From NCBI RefSeq assembly GCF_029223525.1, contig NZ_JARHTQ010000030.1:1-64000 (forward strand): DNA of 64,000 bases, read 5' to 3'. Shown in pieces: positions 18,883 to 28,062 of the stretch. The translations under genes were made by a program, and so were the position numbers. Each line of letters opens with the position of its first letter. Positions within the stretch are counted from its first letter, which is position 1. Below the pieces are notes generated by a model, which was not told the DNA's origin, did not search any database, and worked only from the letters and a program-made list of their open reading frames with translations. Source of the stretch: Streptantibioticus ferralitis (GTDB lineage: Bacteria; Actinomycetota; Actinomycetes; Streptomycetales; Streptomycetaceae).

Positions 18883-20145
18883 ATGGACAACGCTTCGGTC
18901 TACCACTTAGGCTCCACCGTCGAACTTTCCGGCGCGCTGGCGCTCTGGCTGGCGGTGTTCCTGCGACTGCCGACAGCCCGGCGCTCACACCAGCAGCGCA
19001 TGCTCCTGCTCGCCGTGGCCGGTCTCGCCGGGTCGATCACCGTCTATCTGGACCCCGTTACCGCGGCGATCAACCGGACCTTCGTCTTCGCCCAGAGCTG
19101 CGGCCTCTTCATGAACGTATGGGGTGTCTTCAGCTCGGCCCTCATCCTGGACTTCGTGCTGGCCGCCGTCTCCCGGCGGCGCCCGTGGCTGATCTACGGT
19201 TCGATGGCCGTCACGACCGTCGCGTTGATCACCCTCAACTCCACCATCGCGCCGCACTCAGGCTGCGTCACCTCGGAGTCCGTGCCGTGGTACAGCCTGT
19301 TCTGGTGGATCCTGGTCGCCGCGCATCTGACCGGAACCATTCCGTGTCTCGTGATGTGCGTGCGCTACAGCCGTCAGGCGCAGCGGGATCGCCCACTGCG
19401 CGTCGGCCTGGTGCTGCTCGCCGGCGGTTTCCTGTCGTCCACCGTGTTCTGGTCCGTGGTGCTGGCGTTCCTGCTCGCTCGCCCCGCCTGGCTGAGGGCG
19501 CTGTTCCCGCTCAACATCGGCATCACCGCCTGGCTGATGACCGCGGGAACCTCGCTGCCGCTCCTCTTGATGGCGTCCCGGCTCATCCGGCACGCGACGG
19601 CCCTGTGGCGGCTGTCACCACTGTGGCGGGATCTCGTCGGGGCTGTTCCGCACGTCGCCCTGGACCGTCCGCGCGGCCGGTTCCGCGAGACCCTCGGTGG
19701 ACCTCGTTCCGTCTATCTGCGTCTGTACCGGGAAGTCATCGAGATCCGGGACGCCATACTGATCCTGCGTGACTATGTGACGCCCGGGACCGTGGCACGC
19801 GCCCGCGAGCACGTCGGCCTGCTCGGTCTGCCCGAGCATCGGATCGAGCCCGCCGTGGTCGCGTGCTGGCTGGAGGAGGCCCGCCGGGCCAAGGCGGCGG
19901 GTGCCGCACCGCAGCCGAATCCGCTGGACCCCACGAGCTTCCAGGGGCGCGACCTCCAGGACGAGATCGGGTTTCTGCTTGAGGTCCGCCGCGCGCGCCG
20001 ACTCTCCCAGTCGTTCCTTTCCGCCCCGTCGCAGCCGACGTACTCCACGCCCACGTACTCCACCGCCGTTCCGGACGGATACGGCGAGAAGATCACGGAC
20101 ACGCTCCAGTACCAGCCGCAACCAGGAATCCAGCGAGAACTATGA
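18883..20145 (+). CDS. MAB_1171c-type multi-pass membrane protein
   Basis: The 420-residue protein has about seven hydrophobic segments in its first 240 residues (for example LALWLAVFLRL, LILDFVLAAVS, LFWWILVAAHLTGTIPC and WLMTAGTSLPLLLMASRLI). A cytoplasmic C-terminal half with TALWRLSPLWRDLVGAVP and LYREVIEIRDAILILRDY follows. That ending is the signature of the MAB_1171c putative transporter group common in actinomycetes. Function is unknown. Its ATG lies five bases after the ImmA-like stop and its end overlaps the methyltransferase start, indicating translational coupling. Confidence 0.78.
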   Translation: MDNASVYHLGSTVELSGALALWLAVFLRLPTARRSHQQRMLLLAVAGLAGSITVYLDPVTAAINRTFVFAQSCGLFMNVWGVFSSALILDFVLAAVSRRRPWLIYGSMAVTTVALITLNSTIAPHSGCVTSESVPWYSLFWWILVAAHLTGTIPCLVMCVRYSRQAQRDRPLRVGLVLLAGGFLSSTVFWSVVLAFLLARPAWLRALFPLNIGITAWLMTAGTSLPLLLMASRLIRHATALWRLSPLWRDLVGAVPHVALDRPRGRFRETLGGPRSVYLRLYREVIEIRDAILILRDYVTPGTVARAREHVGLLGLPEHRIEPAVVACWLEEARRAKAAGAAPQPNPLDPTSFQGRDLQDEIGFLLEVRRARRLSQSFLSAPSQPTYSTPTYSTAVPDGYGEKITDTLQYQPQPGIQREL

Positions 20146-20969
20146 ACTCCGACCGTCCCGCATCCACCAACCGTTACCGCACCGGCATGTTGGGCAAGAA
20201 CGCTCCGCAGGAACGCACCCGGCTGGAGTCCATCCAGCAGAGCGTGGACTCGCGGACGATCGCGATCATCCAGGACCTCTCCATCACACCGTCCTGGCGC
20301 TGCCTGGAACTGGGTGCGGGTGCCGGATCCATCGCCTACTGGCTGGCCGGGCGCTGCCCGGACGGAGAAGTGGTGGCCGTCGACATCGACACCCAGCACC
20401 TCGACGCCGACCGGGCCGCCAACCTCGTGGTACAGAAGGCCGACATCATCCACGAGGACTACCCACCAGCGAGCTTCGACCTCATTCACGCCCGCTATCT
20501 GCTCTGCCATCTACCGGAGCGCGACGAGATCATCGAACGGGCTGCCGGATGGCTGGCTCCCGGCGGCTGGCTGGTCATCGAGGACCCTTACCAACTCCCC
20601 GCGGACACCTCCCCGTTTCCGGTGGTCCAGCGGCTCATGGCGGCCTACGAGCGCAAGTACAACGAGCATGGCGCCGATCTGACCTGGGCACGGGGCGTTC
20701 CCGCGGTCCTCGCCCGGAGCGGACTGGGCGACGTGGGGTTCGCCGGGAACCTGGGCTGTATGGGGTGCCTCGACAAGGACCGCTGGTTTCCGCTCATCAA
20801 CCAGGCGGGTCCGTCTCTGGTCGCCGACGGCCTCATCACGGAGACGGACCTTCAGCAGTTCTTCGATCTGCTGAAGGACCCGGCCTTTGTCGACATCCCA
20901 CAGGTCACGATTTCGGTGTGGGGGCGCCGTCCTGCGCTGTCAGCGGACGACGGCGCGTCGATCGGCTAG
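20142..20969 (+). CDS. Class I SAM-dependent methyltransferase
   Basis: The 275-residue protein has the Rossmann SAM site WRCLELGAGAGSIAYWLA (motif I), the acidic strand VVAVDIDTQHL (motif II) and FDLIHARYLLCHLPERDEI (motifs III-IV). The LAPGGWLVIEDPYQLP step is typical of small-molecule methyltransferases. Its start overlaps the membrane protein stop by ATGA. The substrate is unknown; the constant linkage with an ImmA-like protease and a MAB_1171c protein in streptomycetes suggests a shared pathway. Confidence 0.83.
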   Translation: MNSDRPASTNRYRTGMLGKNAPQERTRLESIQQSVDSRTIAIIQDLSITPSWRCLELGAGAGSIAYWLAGRCPDGEVVAVDIDTQHLDADRAANLVVQKADIIHEDYPPASFDLIHARYLLCHLPERDEIIERAAGWLAPGGWLVIEDPYQLPADTSPFPVVQRLMAAYERKYNEHGADLTWARGVPAVLARSGLGDVGFAGNLGCMGCLDKDRWFPLINQAGPSLVADGLITETDLQQFFDLLKDPAFVDIPQVTISVWGRRPALSADDGASIG

Positions 20970-21799: not shown

Positions 21800-22618
21800 G
21801 TCTCTCCTTGTGAATGCGTGTGAACACGCGGAGTCGGGATCAGCGGGCCGCTGGCTCCGCCCTGCGACGGTACGCCTGAGTCGGCGTGAGATACAGGTCC
21901 AATTCCGTGCGGGGATCCTGGCCCAATTCCCGTCCCGCAACGCGCCGTTACCCGCTGAACGGCGTCCGGTGCGCTGGTGGTGGCGGTGTACGCGGGCCGC
22001 GAGACCGCGGGTCCGCGGCATCGTGATCGTTCGCCGTCGCGGTGGAATCCCCATACCGCTGCCACGGCGAGTACGGCGGTCGTCTGAACGCCCTTTCCCC
22101 ACGTGGTGGTTGGCACCCCGACGGCGGCAAATCCCTGCTGCCGCCATGCGGCGGAGCATTTTAGCACGCCTGCGGATTGCCCTTGACCCGGCCGCGACCG
22201 CCGCGGCTCGGCGAAGCGGCCTTCGACACGGTTTTGAAATCGCCGTTAAGTCCCCAGAACCGGCTGGTAAAGCCGTTCGAGATCCGCACCGTTGCGCGAC
22301 TCGGGCGTTCTCTCATTTTCCTCTTACGTTCTTCTCATGCTTGGCTTACCAACGCCTTATCCCTGTCTCCTGGTGACGCTTGACATTTTTTCGAACAGAT
22401 TTTGTGGAGGACCTACGCACTCTTGGCCCACTGTTTGCGCCATTGCCACCAACTGCGCCAACTCGTCGTGCGTCTCTATACGTGCAGACAAGCCCGCCGC
22501 TCCCGCTCCGCACGCGGACCGGCGGGCCGCCGTCCCGGTCACACAATGCCGCTGTACGGGGCGGCGGCAGCCGTGACACACGCCCGCCCGCACAGGGCGT
22601 AATCCAGAAGGACTCTCC
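21800..22618. other. Long gene-free leader before the Pls-type synthetase
   Basis: I find no gene in these 819 bp. The part from about 22230 to 22420 is markedly AT- and pyrimidine-rich for this genome (TCATTTTCCTCTTACG, TTGACATTTTTTCG), with a perfect TTGACA at 22380-22385. A long, compositionally distinct upstream region suggests a heavily regulated promoter and a long 5' untranslated leader for the synthetase. No riboswitch fold could be recognised. Confidence 0.45.
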
Positions 22619-25600
22619 TTGACACTGCAACCGCAGTACGCCGCCCCGGCGCGCCGAATTCCGTCCCAGCAGGACTTACTGACCACTTCCCCCGTCTCCG
22701 GAGCGCTCTGGCCGGCGGTACCTCCCGCCCCGGCCCGTACACTCATCGACATCCTGGAGACGGTCGCGCAGACGCATCCCACGGCTCCAGCCCTGGACGC
22801 CGGGGAAGCTGTCCTCGACTACCGCACTCTGCTCGCCGAAGTCACCGTGCTCGCCGACAAGTTGGGCGCACAGGGCATCGGAGCCGGTGACCGGGTGGGT
22901 ATACGTGTGCCCTCCGGCACCGCCGATCTGTATGTGGCCGTTCTCGCCGTGCTGTACGCCGGTGCGGCCTACGTACCGGTCGACGCCGACGATCCCGATG
23001 AGCGGGCCGAGATGATCTGGTCCGAGGCCGCGGTGTCCGCCGTCATCGGGTCCGGTCTTTCGGTGCTCGCCCGCCCCGAGGCCGCCCCGCAGGGCAGGCA
23101 CCGCAGACCGTCCCCCGAGGACGACGCGTGGATCATCTTCACCTCCGGAACGACCGGACGGCCCAAGGGCGTCGCGGTCACCCACCGCTCCGCCGCCGCC
23201 TTCGTCGACGCCGAGGCCCGGCTGTTCCTCCAGCGGGCTCCGCTGGGACCCGGCGACCGTGTGCTGGCCGGTCTTTCGGTCGCGTTCGACGCCTCCTGCG
23301 AGGAGATGTGGCTGGCCTGGCGGCACGGCGCCTGTCTGGTACCGGCTCCCCGCTCGCTGGTCCGCGCGGGCACCGACCTGGGGCCGTGGTTGGTGGAGCG
23401 CGGGATCACGGTGGTGTCGACGGTTCCGACCCTGGTCGCCCTGTGGCCGGTGGAATCCCTCGACCTGGTGAGGCTGTTGATCGTCGGCGGCGAGGCATGC
23501 CCGGCCGAGCTGGTGGACCGCCTCGGCGGCGAACGTGAGATGTGGAACACCTACGGTCCGACGGAGACCACGGTGGTCGCCTGCGCCACCCGGCTCGTGC
23601 CGGGCGAGCCGGTGCGCATCGGCACTCCACTGGACGGCTGGGAACTCGCCGTCGTGGACACCGAGGGCCGTCCCGTCCCCTGGGGTGAGACCGGTGAACT
23701 GGTGATCGCGGGTGTCGGCACCGCGCGCTACCTCGACGAGGCCAAGGACGCCGAGAAGTTCCGCGCGCACCCCGCCCTGCCGGGCCGCCGCGCGTACCGC
23801 AGCGGTGACCTGGTGCGCGCGGAGCGGCAAGGGCTGGTGTTCGTCGGCCGCGCCGACGAACAGGTCAAGCTGGCCGGGCGGCGGGTTGAACTCGGTGAGA
23901 TCGACGCCGCGTTGCAGGCGCTGCCCGGGGTACGGGCGGCCGCCGCCGCGGTACGCGGCACGGCGGGCGGCGGCCAGGTGCTGGTCGGCTACCTGGTACC
24001 GGCGGGGCCGCCGCTGGATGTCGCGGCCGCCCGCCGTCAACTCCTCGACCATCTGCCGCAGTCACTCGTCCCGGTACTCGCCGTGGTCGACGGACTACCG
24101 ACCCGCACCTCGGGCAAGGTCGACCGCAACGCCCTGCCCTGGCCGCTGCCGCATGCCGAGCCGCGGCCGGACGAGGCGCTGGAGGGCACCGCGGCCTGGC
24201 TCGCGGCGCGCTGGCAGGATCTGCTGGGCCTTCCGATCACCGCCGAGTCGGACTTCTTCGCGCTCGGCGGCACCAGTCTGGCCGCCGCGAAGCTGGTCTC
24301 CACCTTGCGCGAGCGGTACCCGGATGTGTCCGTCGCGGATGTCTACCACTGCTCCGGGCTGCTGGCGCTGGCCGAGCGGCTGGACTCGTTCGGCGAGTCG
24401 TCCGGGGCGCAGCGGGTGGTCCGGCCGACGCCGCGGCGCGCCGGGGTCGTGCAGTGCCTGGTGCTGGCCGTCCTGTTCACCGTCACCGGGCTGCGCTGGC
24501 TGCTCGCGCTGGCCGCGCTCGACAATCTGTCGGGTCCGCTGCCCTGGGCGCCGCACACCTCGTGGTGGGTGGTGCTGGGCGGCTGGGTGGCGCTGTACAG
24601 CGCGCCCGCCCGGCTGGCCATCGGCGCCGGGCTGGCCCGGCTGCTCACCCGGGGCCTGCGGCCGGGCGCGCATCCGCGGGGCGGCTCGGTGCATCTGCGG
24701 CTGTGGGCGGCCGAGCGGGTGGTGGCGACGTTCGGCGTACCGCAGCTGATCGGTACGCCATGGGCATCGCGGTACGCCCGCGCGTTGGGCTGCACGGTCG
24801 GCCGTGGCGTCCAGTTGCACTCCATGCCGCCGGTGACCGGACTGGCCGAACTCGGCGACGGCTGCAGCGTGGAGCCGGAGGTCGATCTGGCCGGTTGGTG
24901 GCTGGACGGCGACGTACTGCACCTCGGGGCGCTGCGTGTCGGTGCGGGCGCCCGGGTGGCGACGCGGTCGATGCTGCTGCCCGGTGCGTCGGTGGGTGAC
25001 GGCGCGGAGATCGCGCCCGGTTCCTGTGTGAGCGGGGTGGTACCCGCGAACCAGCGCTGGACCGGCAGCCCGGCCAGGCCCGTTAAGGGCGCGGGCCGGG
25101 TGGGCGCCGAGTGGCCCGCTCCGCGGTATGCGCACTCCCGGCGGTGGTACCCGGCGTACGCGGCCGGGCTGTTGGGCTTCAACCTGCTGCCGCTGGTGTC
25201 CGGGCTGCCCGCGCTCGGGCTGCTCTACTGGATCGCCGGGCGCGATGCCTCGCTGGGCACCCTGCTGGGCGATCTGCTGTGGACCGCTCCCCTGCTGACC
25301 GTGCTGACGATGTCCTGCTACGCGGCGTTGACGGTGGTCATGGTCCGGCTGGCCGGACGGGCGCTGAAGCCCGGCTTCCATCCGGCGCACGGCCGGGCGG
25401 CCTGGTGTGCCTGGGTCACCTCGGGGTTGATGGACCAGGCCCGCGGTTCCCTCTTCCCGTTGTACGCCAGCCTGTTCACGCCGGTGTGGATGCGGTTGCT
25501 GGGCGCGCGGGTGGGGCGCCGGGCCGAGCTGTCCACGGTACTGGCGCTGCCGGGGCTGATGTCGGTCGAGGACGGGGCGTTCCTGGCGGACGACACGTTG

Positions 25601-26548
25601 GTGGCGCCGTACGAAATGCGCGGCGGCTGGCTGCGGTTGGGGACGTCCAGCGTGGGACGACGGGCGTTCGTCGGCAACTCGGGCATCGTCGGGCCGGGTC
25701 GGTCGCTGCCCGACGAGGCGCTGGTCGGCGTGCTCTCCGACGCGCCCGCGCAGGCCGAGCCCGGCTCGTCGTGGCTCGGCAGGCCCGGTTTCACCGTCGC
25801 CCGCAACGCCGACGGCGCTGATCCCAGCCGTACCTTCGAGCCGCCCGCCCGTCTGGTGCTGGCCCGGGCCTCGGTGGAACTGTGCCGGTTCATCCCGCTG
25901 TTGTGCACCGCGGTGCTGGCTGATGTGTCCTTCGTGGCGCTGCAGGAGGTGGTCGACCTCAACGGTTGGGCGGCGGCCACGGTGCTGGCCGGTGTGCTGG
26001 TGTTGGCGGCGGGCGCGGTCGCGTGTGTGACCACGACGGCGGCCAAGTGGCTGCTGGTGGGGCGGTTCCGGCAGGGTGAGCATCCGCTGTGGAGCTCGTT
26101 CGTGTGGCGCAACGAGCTGTACGACGTGTTCGTCGAGGAGTTGGCGATGCCCTGGCTGGGCGGTTCCCTGGTCGGCACGCCGCTGCTGAACGTGTGGCTG
26201 CGCACGCTGGGCGCGCGGATCGGGCGCGGGGTGTGGTGCGAGAGCCACTGGCTGCCGGAGACGGATCTGGTGCGGGTGGAGGACGGGGCGAGCGTGAACC
26301 GCGGCTGTGTGCTGCAGACGCATCTGTTCCACGACCGTCTGATGCGTGTCGACGGCGTCCGGTTGGGGCGAGGCGCGACACTGGGTCCGCACTCCATCGT
26401 GCTGCCCGGTTCCGCGGTCGGCGACGGTACCGTGATCGGCCCGTCGTCCCTGGTGATGCGCGGTGAGCAGGTGCCGTCCGGCACCCGCTGGCTGGGCAAC
26501 CCGGTGTCATCGTGGACGCCGGACGCCGAGCCGGTCGCCTCGGCGTGA
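22619..26548 (+). CDS. pls: Pls/PosA-family NRPS, predicted epsilon-poly-L-lysine synthetase
   Basis: The 1309-residue protein has the architecture of poly(amino acid) synthetases. An adenylation domain comes first, with FTSGTTGRPKGV near 174, FDASCEEMW at 223 and NTYGPTET near 310. A thiolation domain follows (DFFALGGTSLAAAKL, carrier Ser553). The rest is a membrane part with about six helices and tandem hexapeptide-rich segments that act as the polymerising C domains. There is no condensation or thioesterase domain. S. albulus Pls is 1319 residues. Specificity positions read D224 A225 E228 S267 I288 G290 T311 V319 V320 K500, eight of ten matching the classical lysine code. The TTG start follows AGAAGGA at suitable spacing. 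Ornithine or diaminobutyrate remain alternatives. Confidence 0.85.
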   Translation: MTLQPQYAAPARRIPSQQDLLTTSPVSGALWPAVPPAPARTLIDILETVAQTHPTAPALDAGEAVLDYRTLLAEVTVLADKLGAQGIGAGDRVGIRVPSGTADLYVAVLAVLYAGAAYVPVDADDPDERAEMIWSEAAVSAVIGSGLSVLARPEAAPQGRHRRPSPEDDAWIIFTSGTTGRPKGVAVTHRSAAAFVDAEARLFLQRAPLGPGDRVLAGLSVAFDASCEEMWLAWRHGACLVPAPRSLVRAGTDLGPWLVERGITVVSTVPTLVALWPVESLDLVRLLIVGGEACPAELVDRLGGEREMWNTYGPTETTVVACATRLVPGEPVRIGTPLDGWELAVVDTEGRPVPWGETGELVIAGVGTARYLDEAKDAEKFRAHPALPGRRAYRSGDLVRAERQGLVFVGRADEQVKLAGRRVELGEIDAALQALPGVRAAAAAVRGTAGGGQVLVGYLVPAGPPLDVAAARRQLLDHLPQSLVPVLAVVDGLPTRTSGKVDRNALPWPLPHAEPRPDEALEGTAAWLAARWQDLLGLPITAESDFFALGGTSLAAAKLVSTLRERYPDVSVADVYHCSGLLALAERLDSFGESSGAQRVVRPTPRRAGVVQCLVLAVLFTVTGLRWLLALAALDNLSGPLPWAPHTSWWVVLGGWVALYSAPARLAIGAGLARLLTRGLRPGAHPRGGSVHLRLWAAERVVATFGVPQLIGTPWASRYARALGCTVGRGVQLHSMPPVTGLAELGDGCSVEPEVDLAGWWLDGDVLHLGALRVGAGARVATRSMLLPGASVGDGAEIAPGSCVSGVVPANQRWTGSPARPVKGAGRVGAEWPAPRYAHSRRWYPAYAAGLLGFNLLPLVSGLPALGLLYWIAGRDASLGTLLGDLLWTAPLLTVLTMSCYAALTVVMVRLAGRALKPGFHPAHGRAAWCAWVTSGLMDQARGSLFPLYASLFTPVWMRLLGARVGRRAELSTVLALPGLMSVEDGAFLADDTLVAPYEMRGGWLRLGTSSVGRRAFVGNSGIVGPGRSLPDEALVGVLSDAPAQAEPGSSWLGRPGFTVARNADGADPSRTFEPPARLVLARASVELCRFIPLLCTAVLADVSFVALQEVVDLNGWAAATVLAGVLVLAAGAVACVTTTAAKWLLVGRFRQGEHPLWSSFVWRNELYDVFVEELAMPWLGGSLVGTPLLNVWLRTLGARIGRGVWCESHWLPETDLVRVEDGASVNRGCVLQTHLFHDRLMRVDGVRLGRGATLGPHSIVLPGSAVGDGTVIGPSSLVMRGEQVPSGTRWLGNPVSSWTPDAEPVASA

Positions 26549-26592
26549 GCTGCGTCCCTCCGGGGCCCGCGACGTCGACGACGGGCGTCGCG

Positions 26593-26630
26593 GACCCCGG
26601 AACCCCCCGGAACCCCCCGGAACCCCAAGG
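26593..26630 (+). repeat. Short 10-bp tandem repeat before the peptidase ribosome site
   Basis: The unit CCGGAACCCC is repeated about three times head to tail in the 92-bp spacer between the synthetase and the peptidase, ending at the AAGGAG ribosome site. Copy number could vary by slippage and alter spacing or RNA structure. Confidence 0.6.
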
Positions 26631-26640
26631 AGATCGAACC

Positions 26641-28062
26641 GTGTGTCCGTGGACTCGCCGGGCGTTCGTGGCCGGTGCGCTCTCGCTTCCGGTGTCGTGC
26701 GCCGCGGCGGACTCCCACGGGGAGCCTGGTGGCCGAAGGGCGCGGCCGCTGACCTCGGAACGCTACTTCCCCAACCATGGCGACCCGGGATTCCATGTCG
26801 CCGAGTACGACCTGCGGCTGACGTACCATCCGCCGACCCGCGCGCTGGACGGCCTCGCGCGAGTGGCCGCGACCGCCGACGCCGCGGGGGCCGGATTCGG
26901 TCTTGACCTGTCGTCCGCGCTCACCGTCTCCGCGGTGAGCGTGGACGGGGTCGCCGCCCAATTCCGGCATCGACGGGGCAAGTTGCGGGTCACGGCGGCC
27001 ACCGCGCTGGCGCCCGGGCAGCCGTTCAGTTGCGAGGTGCGCTACTCGGGCAGGCCCAAACCGCTGCGCACCCCCTTCGGCGACATCGGCTGGGACTACA
27101 CCACGGACTCGCCCCCCGGTGTGCTGGTGGCCAGCCAGCCGCTGGGCGCGCCCTCCTGGTTCCCGTGCAACGACCATCCCGCCGACAAGGCCGCGTACCG
27201 GGTGGCGGTGACCGTACCCGAGGGGTACCAGGTGGTCGCCAACGGAGTGCTCACCGACCGTTCGACGGCACCGGGTTCCGGAACGACCTGGACGTATGAG
27301 CACGCCGGGCCGATGGCCAGTTATCTGGCCACGCTCAACGTGGGCCGCTTCGTCTTCACCACGCAGCACGGCGGCCCGGTACCGATCCGCAACGCGTACC
27401 CCATGCGGCTGGCCACCGCCTTCGACCATGACTTCGGACGGCAGCCGCAGATGATGCGGCTGTTCCAGGAACTGTTCGGGCGGTACCCGTTCGAGGTGTA
27501 CGGATCGGTGGTCGTCGAGGCCGAACTCGACGAGCCGGTGGAGAACCAGACGTTCTCCCTGTTCGGCAGCAACCATGTGGACGGCAAACGCGGCAGTGAG
27601 CGCCTGGTCGCGCATGAACTCGCCCACCACTGGTTCGGCAACAGCGTCACTCTCGCGCAATGGCGGCACATCTGGCTCAACGAGGGGTTCGCCACCTACT
27701 GCGAGTGGTTGTGGTCCGAGCATTCCGGCGGCTCCAGCGCCGACCAGCTGGCGGCGGACAACTGGGCGGACCTGGCCCAGGCGGGCCAGCGGCTGCGGAT
27801 CGGCGATCCCGGCCCCGACCGGCTCTTCGACGACCGGGTCTACTCACGCGGCGCCTGCACCCTGCACGCGCTGCGCACCACGATCGGCGACGACGCCTTC
27901 TACGCGACGCTCAGGGCGTGGGCGGACCAGTACCGCCACCGCAACGCCGGGACGGAGGAGTTCATCGCCCTCGCCGAGCAGCACGGCAACCGGAAACTGG
28001 ACTCGCTCTTCCGCTCATGGCTGTACGAGAAGCGGCTGCCGCGGCTGCCACAGCGCGCCTGA
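26641..28062 (+). CDS. Secreted M1-family zinc aminopeptidase, partner of the synthetase
   Basis: The 473-residue protein has the gluzincin site HELAHHW (H325, E326, H329) and the third ligand in NEGFATYCEW (E348), exactly HExxH-x18-E. PVENQTFSLFG stands in for the exopeptidase GxMEN strand. The N-terminus (TRRAFVAGALSLPVSC) is a twin-arginine-like signal with a possible lipid-attachment Cys. The GTG at 26641 has AAGGAG eight bases upstream; longer frames start inside the synthetase gene. Zinc peptidases that trim epsilon-polylysine protect producers from their own polymer; position and family make that role likely here but unproven. Confidence 0.82.
   Translation: MCPWTRRAFVAGALSLPVSCAAADSHGEPGGRRARPLTSERYFPNHGDPGFHVAEYDLRLTYHPPTRALDGLARVAATADAAGAGFGLDLSSALTVSAVSVDGVAAQFRHRRGKLRVTAATALAPGQPFSCEVRYSGRPKPLRTPFGDIGWDYTTDSPPGVLVASQPLGAPSWFPCNDHPADKAAYRVAVTVPEGYQVVANGVLTDRSTAPGSGTTWTYEHAGPMASYLATLNVGRFVFTTQHGGPVPIRNAYPMRLATAFDHDFGRQPQMMRLFQELFGRYPFEVYGSVVVEAELDEPVENQTFSLFGSNHVDGKRGSERLVAHELAHHWFGNSVTLAQWRHIWLNEGFATYCEWLWSEHSGGSSADQLAADNWADLAQAGQRLRIGDPGPDRLFDDRVYSRGACTLHALRTTIGDDAFYATLRAWADQYRHRNAGTEEFIALAEQHGNRKLDSLFRSWLYEKRLPRLPQRA

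What the first reader, a model, noticed from the sequence alone, without database searches (positions are those of the whole stretch)
22619..28062. Predicted epsilon-poly-L-lysine synthetase with an adjacent secreted M1 peptidase
Seen: a single A-T module followed by about six membrane helices and tandem hexapeptide-like segments, 1309 residues, no condensation or thioesterase domain. Anchored by core motifs, the ten specificity positions are D A E S I G T V V K, with Glu at the third position to hold an amine side chain. From memory the classical lysine code is D-A-E-S-I-G-S-V-C-K (bacitracin), so eight of ten agree. Next gene: exported HExxH-x18-E peptidase. Known: such synthetases make cationic homopolymers and producers carry zinc peptidases that cut them. 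Inference: a polymer synthesis and self-protection or trimming pair.
Basis: partly seen in the sequence, partly recalled or inferred. Interest (0 to 1): 0.82.

Follow-up and report, generated by a model that had tools for sequence, protein, structure and literature searches.

The report
Polylysine synthetase with exported degrading peptidase
This actinomycete carries a gene pair that very probably makes the antimicrobial polymer epsilon-polylysine and breaks it down outside the cell; the pair is of a known kind, but it comes from a branch of the enzyme family whose members mostly lack the breakdown partner.

Summary
ORF 22619-26548 encodes a 1309-aa Pls/PosA-family synthetase: one A-T module, then three units of membrane hairpin plus hexapeptide-type domain. 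Its code residues, DAESIGTVVK, match the solved epsilon-polylysine synthase A domain (7WEW) at 10 of 10 positions, and it groups with Pls, not the poly-diaminobutyrate type. The next gene is an intact M1 zinc peptidase, PldII-like; its start should move to 26641, which gives a twin-arginine-like leader and removes the overlap. Both genes are under purifying selection and paired in all three genomes held for the genus. pls-pldII pairs are published, so this is a new member of a known kind.

Not found in the open-access papers searched: the genome has three synthetases with this code plus a poly-diaminobutyrate-type cluster. The window copy lies in a third Pls branch in which 11 of 16 rows lack the peptidase. 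In 91 family genomes, 30 of 31 single-copy genomes have the peptidase next door, and 29 of 31 genomes with a peptidase-less copy hold another pls-peptidase pair. The leader occurs in peptidases of two Pls branches and not in the third. A paralogue has Gly/Pro at two positions where mutations shorten chains.

The parts
22606..22612 (+). Shine-Dalgarno-like AGAAGGA, 6 nt before the TTG start of the synthetase
   Evidence: sequence read; the orthologue L099 begins with the same residues LTLQPQYA
22619..26548 (+). Pls-type synthetase, 1309 aa (A-T-terminal domain)
   Evidence: 73% identical to a Streptantibioticus cattleyicolor plasmid copy and 63% to the annotated pls of Streptomyces sp. NBC_01454
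22757..24139 (+). adenylation domain, about residues 47-507; code residues D224 A225 E228 S267 I288 G290 T311 V319 V320 K500 = DAESIGTVVK
   Evidence: 69.5% identical to 7WEW over 479 positions; the domain borders are approximate
24197..24382 (+). carrier (T) domain, residues 527-588, phosphopantetheine Ser553 (GGTSL)
   Evidence: Pfam PF00550; S553 invariant
24446..26506 (+). terminal domain TIGR02353: three units of membrane hairpin plus hexapeptide-type domain
26627..26632 (+). Shine-Dalgarno AAGGAG of the peptidase gene
26641..28062 (+). M1 zinc peptidase, PldII-like, 473 aa (revised start)
26641..26712 (+). twin-arginine-like leader (CPWTRRAFVAGALSLPVSCAAAD)
   Evidence: inspection and hydropathy only, no signal-peptide program was available
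27613..27684 (+). zinc motif HExxH-18-E (HELAH...NE)

Best explanation
The pair makes and limits epsilon-poly-L-lysine. The A domain activates L-lysine as its adenylate and loads it on the carrier domain (inferred from the code and homology). The membrane-embedded terminal domain, built of three hairpin-plus-hexapeptide units, joins lysines through the epsilon-amine and releases the polymer outward (established for Pls; inferred here). The M1 peptidase next door is sent across the membrane by a twin-arginine-like leader and cleaves polymer at the cell surface, which protects the producer or trims chains (inferred from S. albulus PldII). In this genome it is one of three Pls-coded synthetases and one poly-diaminobutyrate-type synthetase; its external peptidase could also act on polymer from the peptidase-less paralogue (speculative).
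For: TIGR02353 over cut-off. Code identical to 7WEW and to all 80 fetched relatives (one of the two search patterns covers code positions 2 and 3, so identity there is partly by construction). Groups with Pls; the poly-Dab and Rhizobium rows lie across a fully supported long branch. Departs at 2 of 222 columns conserved in the other clades. dN/dS 0.18-0.23 for the synthetase and 0.23-0.27 for the peptidase against two orthologues. Pair kept in the genus, neighbours collinear. M1 fold and zinc site intact. Published precedent: C. variabile Pls, 51% identical to Streptomyces Pls, made epsilon-polylysine in S. coelicolor, and the pls-pldII operon is described (PMC8117764, Results read). PldII of S. 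albulus is outside the membrane (PMC9223678, passages). The chain-length linker positions W646 and L883 of S. albulus Pls are Trp and Leu here (mutants cited in PMC8506220, passages).
Against: No product or activity data. The branch that holds the window copy contains no sequence that I could tie to a characterised enzyme, so chain length and even production are extrapolated. Pls genes can be silent: C. variabile itself made no detectable polymer in culture. Inactivating both S. albulus degrading enzymes is reported not to change yield or polymerisation degree, against a required trimming role (PMC8506220 passage), although PMC9223678 reports longer chains on repression (abstract passage). The leader was judged by eye and hydropathy.
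Confidence: 0.88

Rival explanations
1. The synthetase makes a cationic homopolymer other than epsilon-poly-L-lysine, such as poly-ornithine, poly-diaminobutyrate or poly-beta-lysine.
For: The family as a whole makes several polymers and codes only approximate substrates (PMC10522769, passages). The window copy lies in a branch with no enzyme that I could link to a product.
Against: Code identical to 7WEW in 10 of 10 positions. Position 2 is Ala, as reported for lysine enzymes; Met in PosA and Phe in PDAP/PDAB. The genome's poly-Dab-type paralogue has a clearly different code, DFECLSAVTK, with a dat-type transaminase and an aspartate kinase beside it; none of the eight neighbours of the window pair that I scanned is of that kind.
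Confidence: 0.06
2. The window copy is a non-producing or drifting spare of the genome's other Pls copy on contig C62.
For: Three Pls-coded copies in one genome; paralogues often drift. The C33 copy departs at 9 of 222 conserved columns.
Against: The window copy departs at only 2 of 222 columns, is under purifying selection and is kept with its peptidase in all three genomes held for the genus, whereas G001 has no C62-type copy.
Confidence: 0.05
3. The M1 peptidase is an ordinary nutrient aminopeptidase that merely sits beside the synthetase.
For: It has the general two-domain M1 fold; best PDB matches are Deinococcus radiodurans M1 entries, one with a bound tripeptide. The genome has further M1 paralogues elsewhere.
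Against: Adjacency is conserved far beyond the genus: 72 of 80 fetched relatives and 30 of 31 single-copy genomes in a separately drawn family sample. The published PldII has this gene context.
Confidence: 0.07

Closest known systems
epsilon-poly-L-lysine synthetase Pls of Streptomyces albulus (PDB 7WEW A domain; that 7WEW is from S. albulus is recalled, the call names only the molecule)
   Same: A-T plus TIGR02353 terminal domain, identical ten-residue code, Trp and Leu at the two chain-length linker positions, M1 peptidase gene downstream
   Different: 69.5% identical over the A domain; lies in a separate Pls branch; 92-nt gap to the peptidase gene instead of the translational coupling reported for S. 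albulus (PMC9223678 passage)
PldII, epsilon-polylysine-degrading enzyme of S. albulus
   Same: M1 zinc peptidase encoded directly after pls, leader consistent with the exterior location, intact zinc motif
   Different: PldII itself was not aligned; the M1s beside S. albulus-type pls genes are about 52-56% identical; activity untested
Corynebacterium variabile pls-peptidase operon (PMC8117764)
   Same: same gene pair; the synthetase was shown to make epsilon-polylysine in a heterologous host
   Different: other actinomycete lineage; not aligned here
PosA, delta-poly-L-ornithine synthetase of Acinetobacter baumannii (PMC10522769)
   Same: same overall architecture
   Different: code DMEHNGTVSK as printed in the paper; reported as a single-gene operon
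gamma-poly-diaminobutyrate synthetase clusters (pldA-dat-ask)
   Same: same family; the genome holds one such cluster on contig C88
   Different: code DFECLSAVTK, 36% identity to the window copy, dat and ask genes alongside

Membership tests
epsilon-poly-L-lysine synthetase (Pls) | single A-T module with TIGR02353 terminal domain, no condensation or thioesterase domain | tested here: met
epsilon-poly-L-lysine synthetase (Pls) | six membrane helices separating three hexapeptide-type domains | tested here: met
   AlphaFold2 model, mean pLDDT 78, pTM 0.83; Foldseek hits to hexapeptide acetyltransferases over about 190 columns at about 13% identity. Membrane insertion itself was not tested
epsilon-poly-L-lysine synthetase (Pls) | lysine code as in confirmed Pls | tested here: met
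   10 of 10 with 7WEW
epsilon-poly-L-lysine synthetase (Pls) | groups with Pls rather than poly-Dab or other polymer synthetases | tested here: met
   tree of 67 rows; the Pls reference in it is the 7WEW A domain and annotated or near-identical copies. PosA, PDAP and D-Dab enzymes were not in the tree
epsilon-poly-L-lysine synthetase (Pls) | makes epsilon-poly-L-lysine | not testable with these tools
   needs expression and mass spectrometry
PldII-type degrading peptidase | M1 fold with HExxH-18-E, gene directly downstream of pls | tested here: met
PldII-type degrading peptidase | located outside the membrane | tested here: inconclusive
   twin-arginine-like leader by inspection and hydropathy; no predictor or experiment
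PldII-type degrading peptidase | cleaves epsilon-polylysine | not testable with these tools
   needs enzyme assay
poly-diaminobutyrate or PosA-type synthetase | Phe or Met at code position 2; for Dab, dat and ask genes alongside | tested here: not met
   Ala at position 2; the scanned neighbours include a PEP mutase-type gene and a universal stress protein, no transaminase or aspartate kinase

The most novel reading that the evidence does not exclude
Streptomycetaceae run several epsilon-polylysine lines at once with shared protection: a third Pls branch tends to lack its own peptidase and relies in trans on a pls-peptidase pair elsewhere. The peptidases divide into an exported class (S. albulus-type and window-type branches) and a leaderless, probably cytosolic class (the widespread branch), so producers would deal with polymer on two sides of the membrane. 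In this genome the peptidase-less C33 paralogue, with Gly and Pro at the two linker positions whose mutation shortens chains in S. albulus Pls, would make a short polymer beside the long one of the window copy.
Probability: 0.3. Interest if true: 0.55.

Novelty: new member of a known kind. Interest (0 to 1): 0.36.

Why it matters
Epsilon-polylysine is a food preservative, and the need for a degrading enzyme is unsettled (inactivation and repression reports disagree). A genome with three synthetases of the same code, of which two have a peptidase next door (one with a leader, one without) and one has none, is a natural test bed: single and combined deletions would show whether one peptidase protects against several polymer lines and on which side of the membrane. 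The C33 copy offers a natural test of what sets chain length.

Tried and rejected
Rejected: overlap or translational coupling of the two genes through the long ORF (revised start). Rejected: a poly-Dab or ornithine product for the window copy (code and tree). Considered, not settled: short chains from the window copy. Its linker positions are Trp and Leu as in long-chain S. albulus Pls, yet the same branch holds two peptidase-less copies of Kitasatospora aureofaciens CPD02 (L012, L015), a species reported as a short-chain producer (PMC8506220 passage); which of its three copies corresponds to the characterised one (AZL89021.1, named in PMC8117764) could not be checked. The two linker positions are not fixed in the family: position 883 is Leu in 27 of 39 rows of group II and 12 of 16 of group III, so the C33 prediction is weak. 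Led nowhere: a literature search for pls phylogeny with paralogues and one for structures listed nothing on Pls; a search pairing the degrading enzyme with 'twin-arginine' gave 0 papers. PDB search with the Dab-type paralogue did not print the PosA alignment that I wanted. Limits of the pairing count: copies were split at 64% identity to the window copy as a stand-in for the branch, chosen by eye, and S. albulus-type copies lie close to that line (63-65%); some copies are pieces of fragmented genes; two pieces (G064:C32:8778-10541 and G045:C84:553098-554483) were left out because the other piece of the same gene was counted, while pieces in G022, G254 and G049 were counted as printed. Only the 64 best M1 rows, down to E about 1e-101, were entered, so weaker M1 paralogues beside a synthetase would be missed. 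The sample overlaps the genomes reached through loci (G035 and G054 show the same coordinates as G247 and G249) and holds the window's own genome and its two genus mates. Copy numbers are capped at four scored candidates per genome.
Full report
What was claimed and what is there. The window is the first 64 kb of contig C34 of an 8.8-Mb, 110-contig genome. The synthetase is 1309 aa, starts at TTG 22619 behind AGAAGGA and has only AMP-binding, PP-binding and hexapeptide hits in Pfam at E up to 0.001, with TIGR02353 'Pls/PosA family' at 692 bits against a cut-off of 423.

The code. The alignment to the solved A domain of an epsilon-poly-L-lysine synthase (7WEW) has one single-residue gap between code positions 6 and 7, off the code residues themselves. 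The ten positions read DAESIGTVVK in both, and also in the genome's C62 and C33 copies and in all 80 relatives fetched from named genomes. Those relatives were found with the patterns DDAWIIF and ASCEEMW; the latter spans code positions 2 and 3, so identity there is partly by construction. A-domain identity to 7WEW is 69.5% for the window copy, 67.4% for C62, 68.0% for C33 and 36.4% for the Dab-type copy on C88. PMC10522769 (passages) reports position 2 as Ala in lysine enzymes, Met in PosA and Phe in PDAP/PDAB; the window has Ala.

Terminal domain. An AlphaFold2 model of residues 515-1309 on 43 sequences (pLDDT 78, pTM 0.83) shows three repeats of long helices, shorter helices and a short beta domain. 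Foldseek returns galactoside and maltose O-acetyltransferases of the hexapeptide type as best hits (best E 3e-5, about 190 columns, 13% identity). This agrees with the published description of six membrane segments and three acetyltransferase-related domains (PMC8117764, Results read).

The peptidase. The 516-aa ORF is too long. The GTG at 26641 has AAGGAG 8 nt upstream and is the start of the ORFs of both genus orthologues (L097, L099). The protein is then 473 aa, begins VCPWTRRAFVAGALSLPVSCAAAD and lies 92 nt behind the synthetase. Among 79 aligned M1s the zinc motif HExxH-18-E is intact in 79; at the GAMEN position (motif recalled) Pro and Glu are kept in 79 of 79, followed by Ala in 68, Asn in 10 and Thr in 1. 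The AlphaFold2 model (pLDDT 85, residues 1-39 under 50) matches the Deinococcus two-domain M1 peptidase best (6ifg, TM 0.81).

Is the pair under selection? Against the two genus orthologues dN/dS is 0.18-0.23 for the synthetase and 0.23-0.27 for the peptidase. Gene order is collinear from about 18.4 to 34.3 kb with G001, and from the synthetase to 34.3 kb with G002; the upstream side of G002 does not match. Of 222 columns that are at least 97% conserved in the other clades and the Dab group, the window synthetase departs at 2 and the C33 copy at 9 (gaps not counted).

Four synthetases in one genome. The genome has four TIGR02353 proteins over the cut-off. C62 is Pls-coded with an M1 gene next to it. 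C34 is the window. C33 is Pls-coded with no M1 in the 18-kb stretch searched. C88 has code DFECLSAVTK and is followed by a dat-family transaminase, an aspartate kinase (both over an NCBIfam cut-off) and an M1 gene, that is, a poly-diaminobutyrate-type cluster. In the family sample 173 of 247 genomes have at least one TIGR02353 protein (at most four candidates scored per genome).

Tree. A quick maximum-likelihood tree of 67 rows (51 of the 80 fetched loci were used) gives three Pls groups: I with 7WEW, L018 (92.6% identical to 7WEW) and the annotated pls of NBC_01454 (7 rows); II, broad across actinomycetes, with C62 (39 rows); III, 16 rows, with the window and C33 (SH-aLRT 99). The named rows of III are Streptomycetaceae; the unnamed ones are of the window's own genus. 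The join of II and III has 90 only. Eleven of the 16 rows of group III have no M1 in the stretch held, which reaches 2.3 kb downstream for L012 and at least 5.8 kb for the other ten. L017 (group II) and L031 (group I) end within 0.6 kb and were not scored.

Peptidase pairing in a separately drawn sample. In 91 family genomes (joined), 61 have Pls copies at E up to 1e-200, 100 rows counted. Copies at least 64% identical to the window copy have an M1 within 3 kb downstream in 7 of 44 cases, the others in 53 of 56. Of 31 genomes with one counted copy 30 have it (exception G009). Of 31 genomes with a peptidase-less copy, 29 also have a pls-M1 pair; the exceptions are G009, which has none, and the fragmented G022, which has an M1 on another contig. 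In the seven genomes reached through loci the same picture holds: the five with peptidase-less copies (G247-G251) each have another pls with M1 beside it, and G252, with a single copy, has it beside that copy. Rows are related and the two sets overlap (G035 = G247 and G054 = G249 by coordinates), so these are not independent events. The trend may reflect one ancestral loss in a branch that occurs mainly as a second copy.

Leader classes. Among the 79 M1s, RR before a hydrophobic stretch occurs in 5 of 5 partners of group I (one at hydropathy 1.49, just under the 1.5 line of the script, which therefore counted 4) and 5 of 5 of group III, in 0 of 67 of the rest and in 0 of 2 Dab-cluster M1s. In an M1 tree of 45 of these rows the ten leader-bearing proteins and the two Dab-cluster ones form one side of a fully supported branch; the ten alone have 83. 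S. albulus PldII is reported outside the membrane (PMC9223678, passages), in line with group I. That group II partners lack a leader, and so are probably cytosolic, I did not find in the open-access library (searches; of the papers listed I read passages, and the Results of one).

Chain length. W646 and L883 of S. albulus Pls, whose mutants W646S and L883P give shorter chains (PMC8506220, passage), were mapped through L105 (1319 aa, Trp and Leu at those numbers). They are Trp and Leu in the window copy and in C62, and Gly and Pro in C33 and both its genus orthologues (the window-C33 alignment is ungapped there). Against a strict rule, both positions also vary elsewhere: in group III Trp in 12 of 16 and Leu in 12 of 16, in group II Trp in 36 of 39 and Leu in 27 of 39. 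I predict a normal-length product for the window copy and, with less confidence, a shorter one for C33.

Verdict. Interest comes from the set of paralogues, the missing partner in one branch and the two leader classes, all correlative.

Noticed in passing
L008:9060-13190 (genome contig C33): Third Pls-coded synthetase without an adjacent peptidase; Gly and Pro at the two chain-length linker positions in it and both genus orthologues; nine departures from otherwise conserved columns, some next to code positions in sequence.
   Followed up: partly
L009:4195-12499 (genome contig C88): Poly-diaminobutyrate-type cluster (synthetase, dat-type transaminase, aspartate kinase) that ends with a leaderless M1 peptidase; an M1 also lies downstream of the sister copy in G002 (L103) but not within 8 kb in three plasmid relatives (L107-L109).
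   Followed up: partly
L102:3910-10052 (sister genome G002 contig C61): TIGR02353-type protein of up to 965 aa without its own A domain, next to a separate ORF similar to the A domain; open frames of about 800-965 aa recur among the listed TIGR02353 matches of the family sample. A split architecture that I did not pursue.
   Followed up: no
L093 and L095 (orthologues of the C33 copy in G001 and G002): Val for Ile at code position 5 (DAESVGTVVK in L093; L095 is partial but agrees).
   Followed up: no
genome contig C23:102447-103892: A further M1 homologue (36% identity) reads with two stop codons inside the aligned stretch; either the aligned range runs past the gene's start or the gene is broken.
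   Followed up: no
window 18883-20969: DUF6545 protein followed by a methyltransferase, kept in G001 upstream of the synthetase locus.
   Followed up: no
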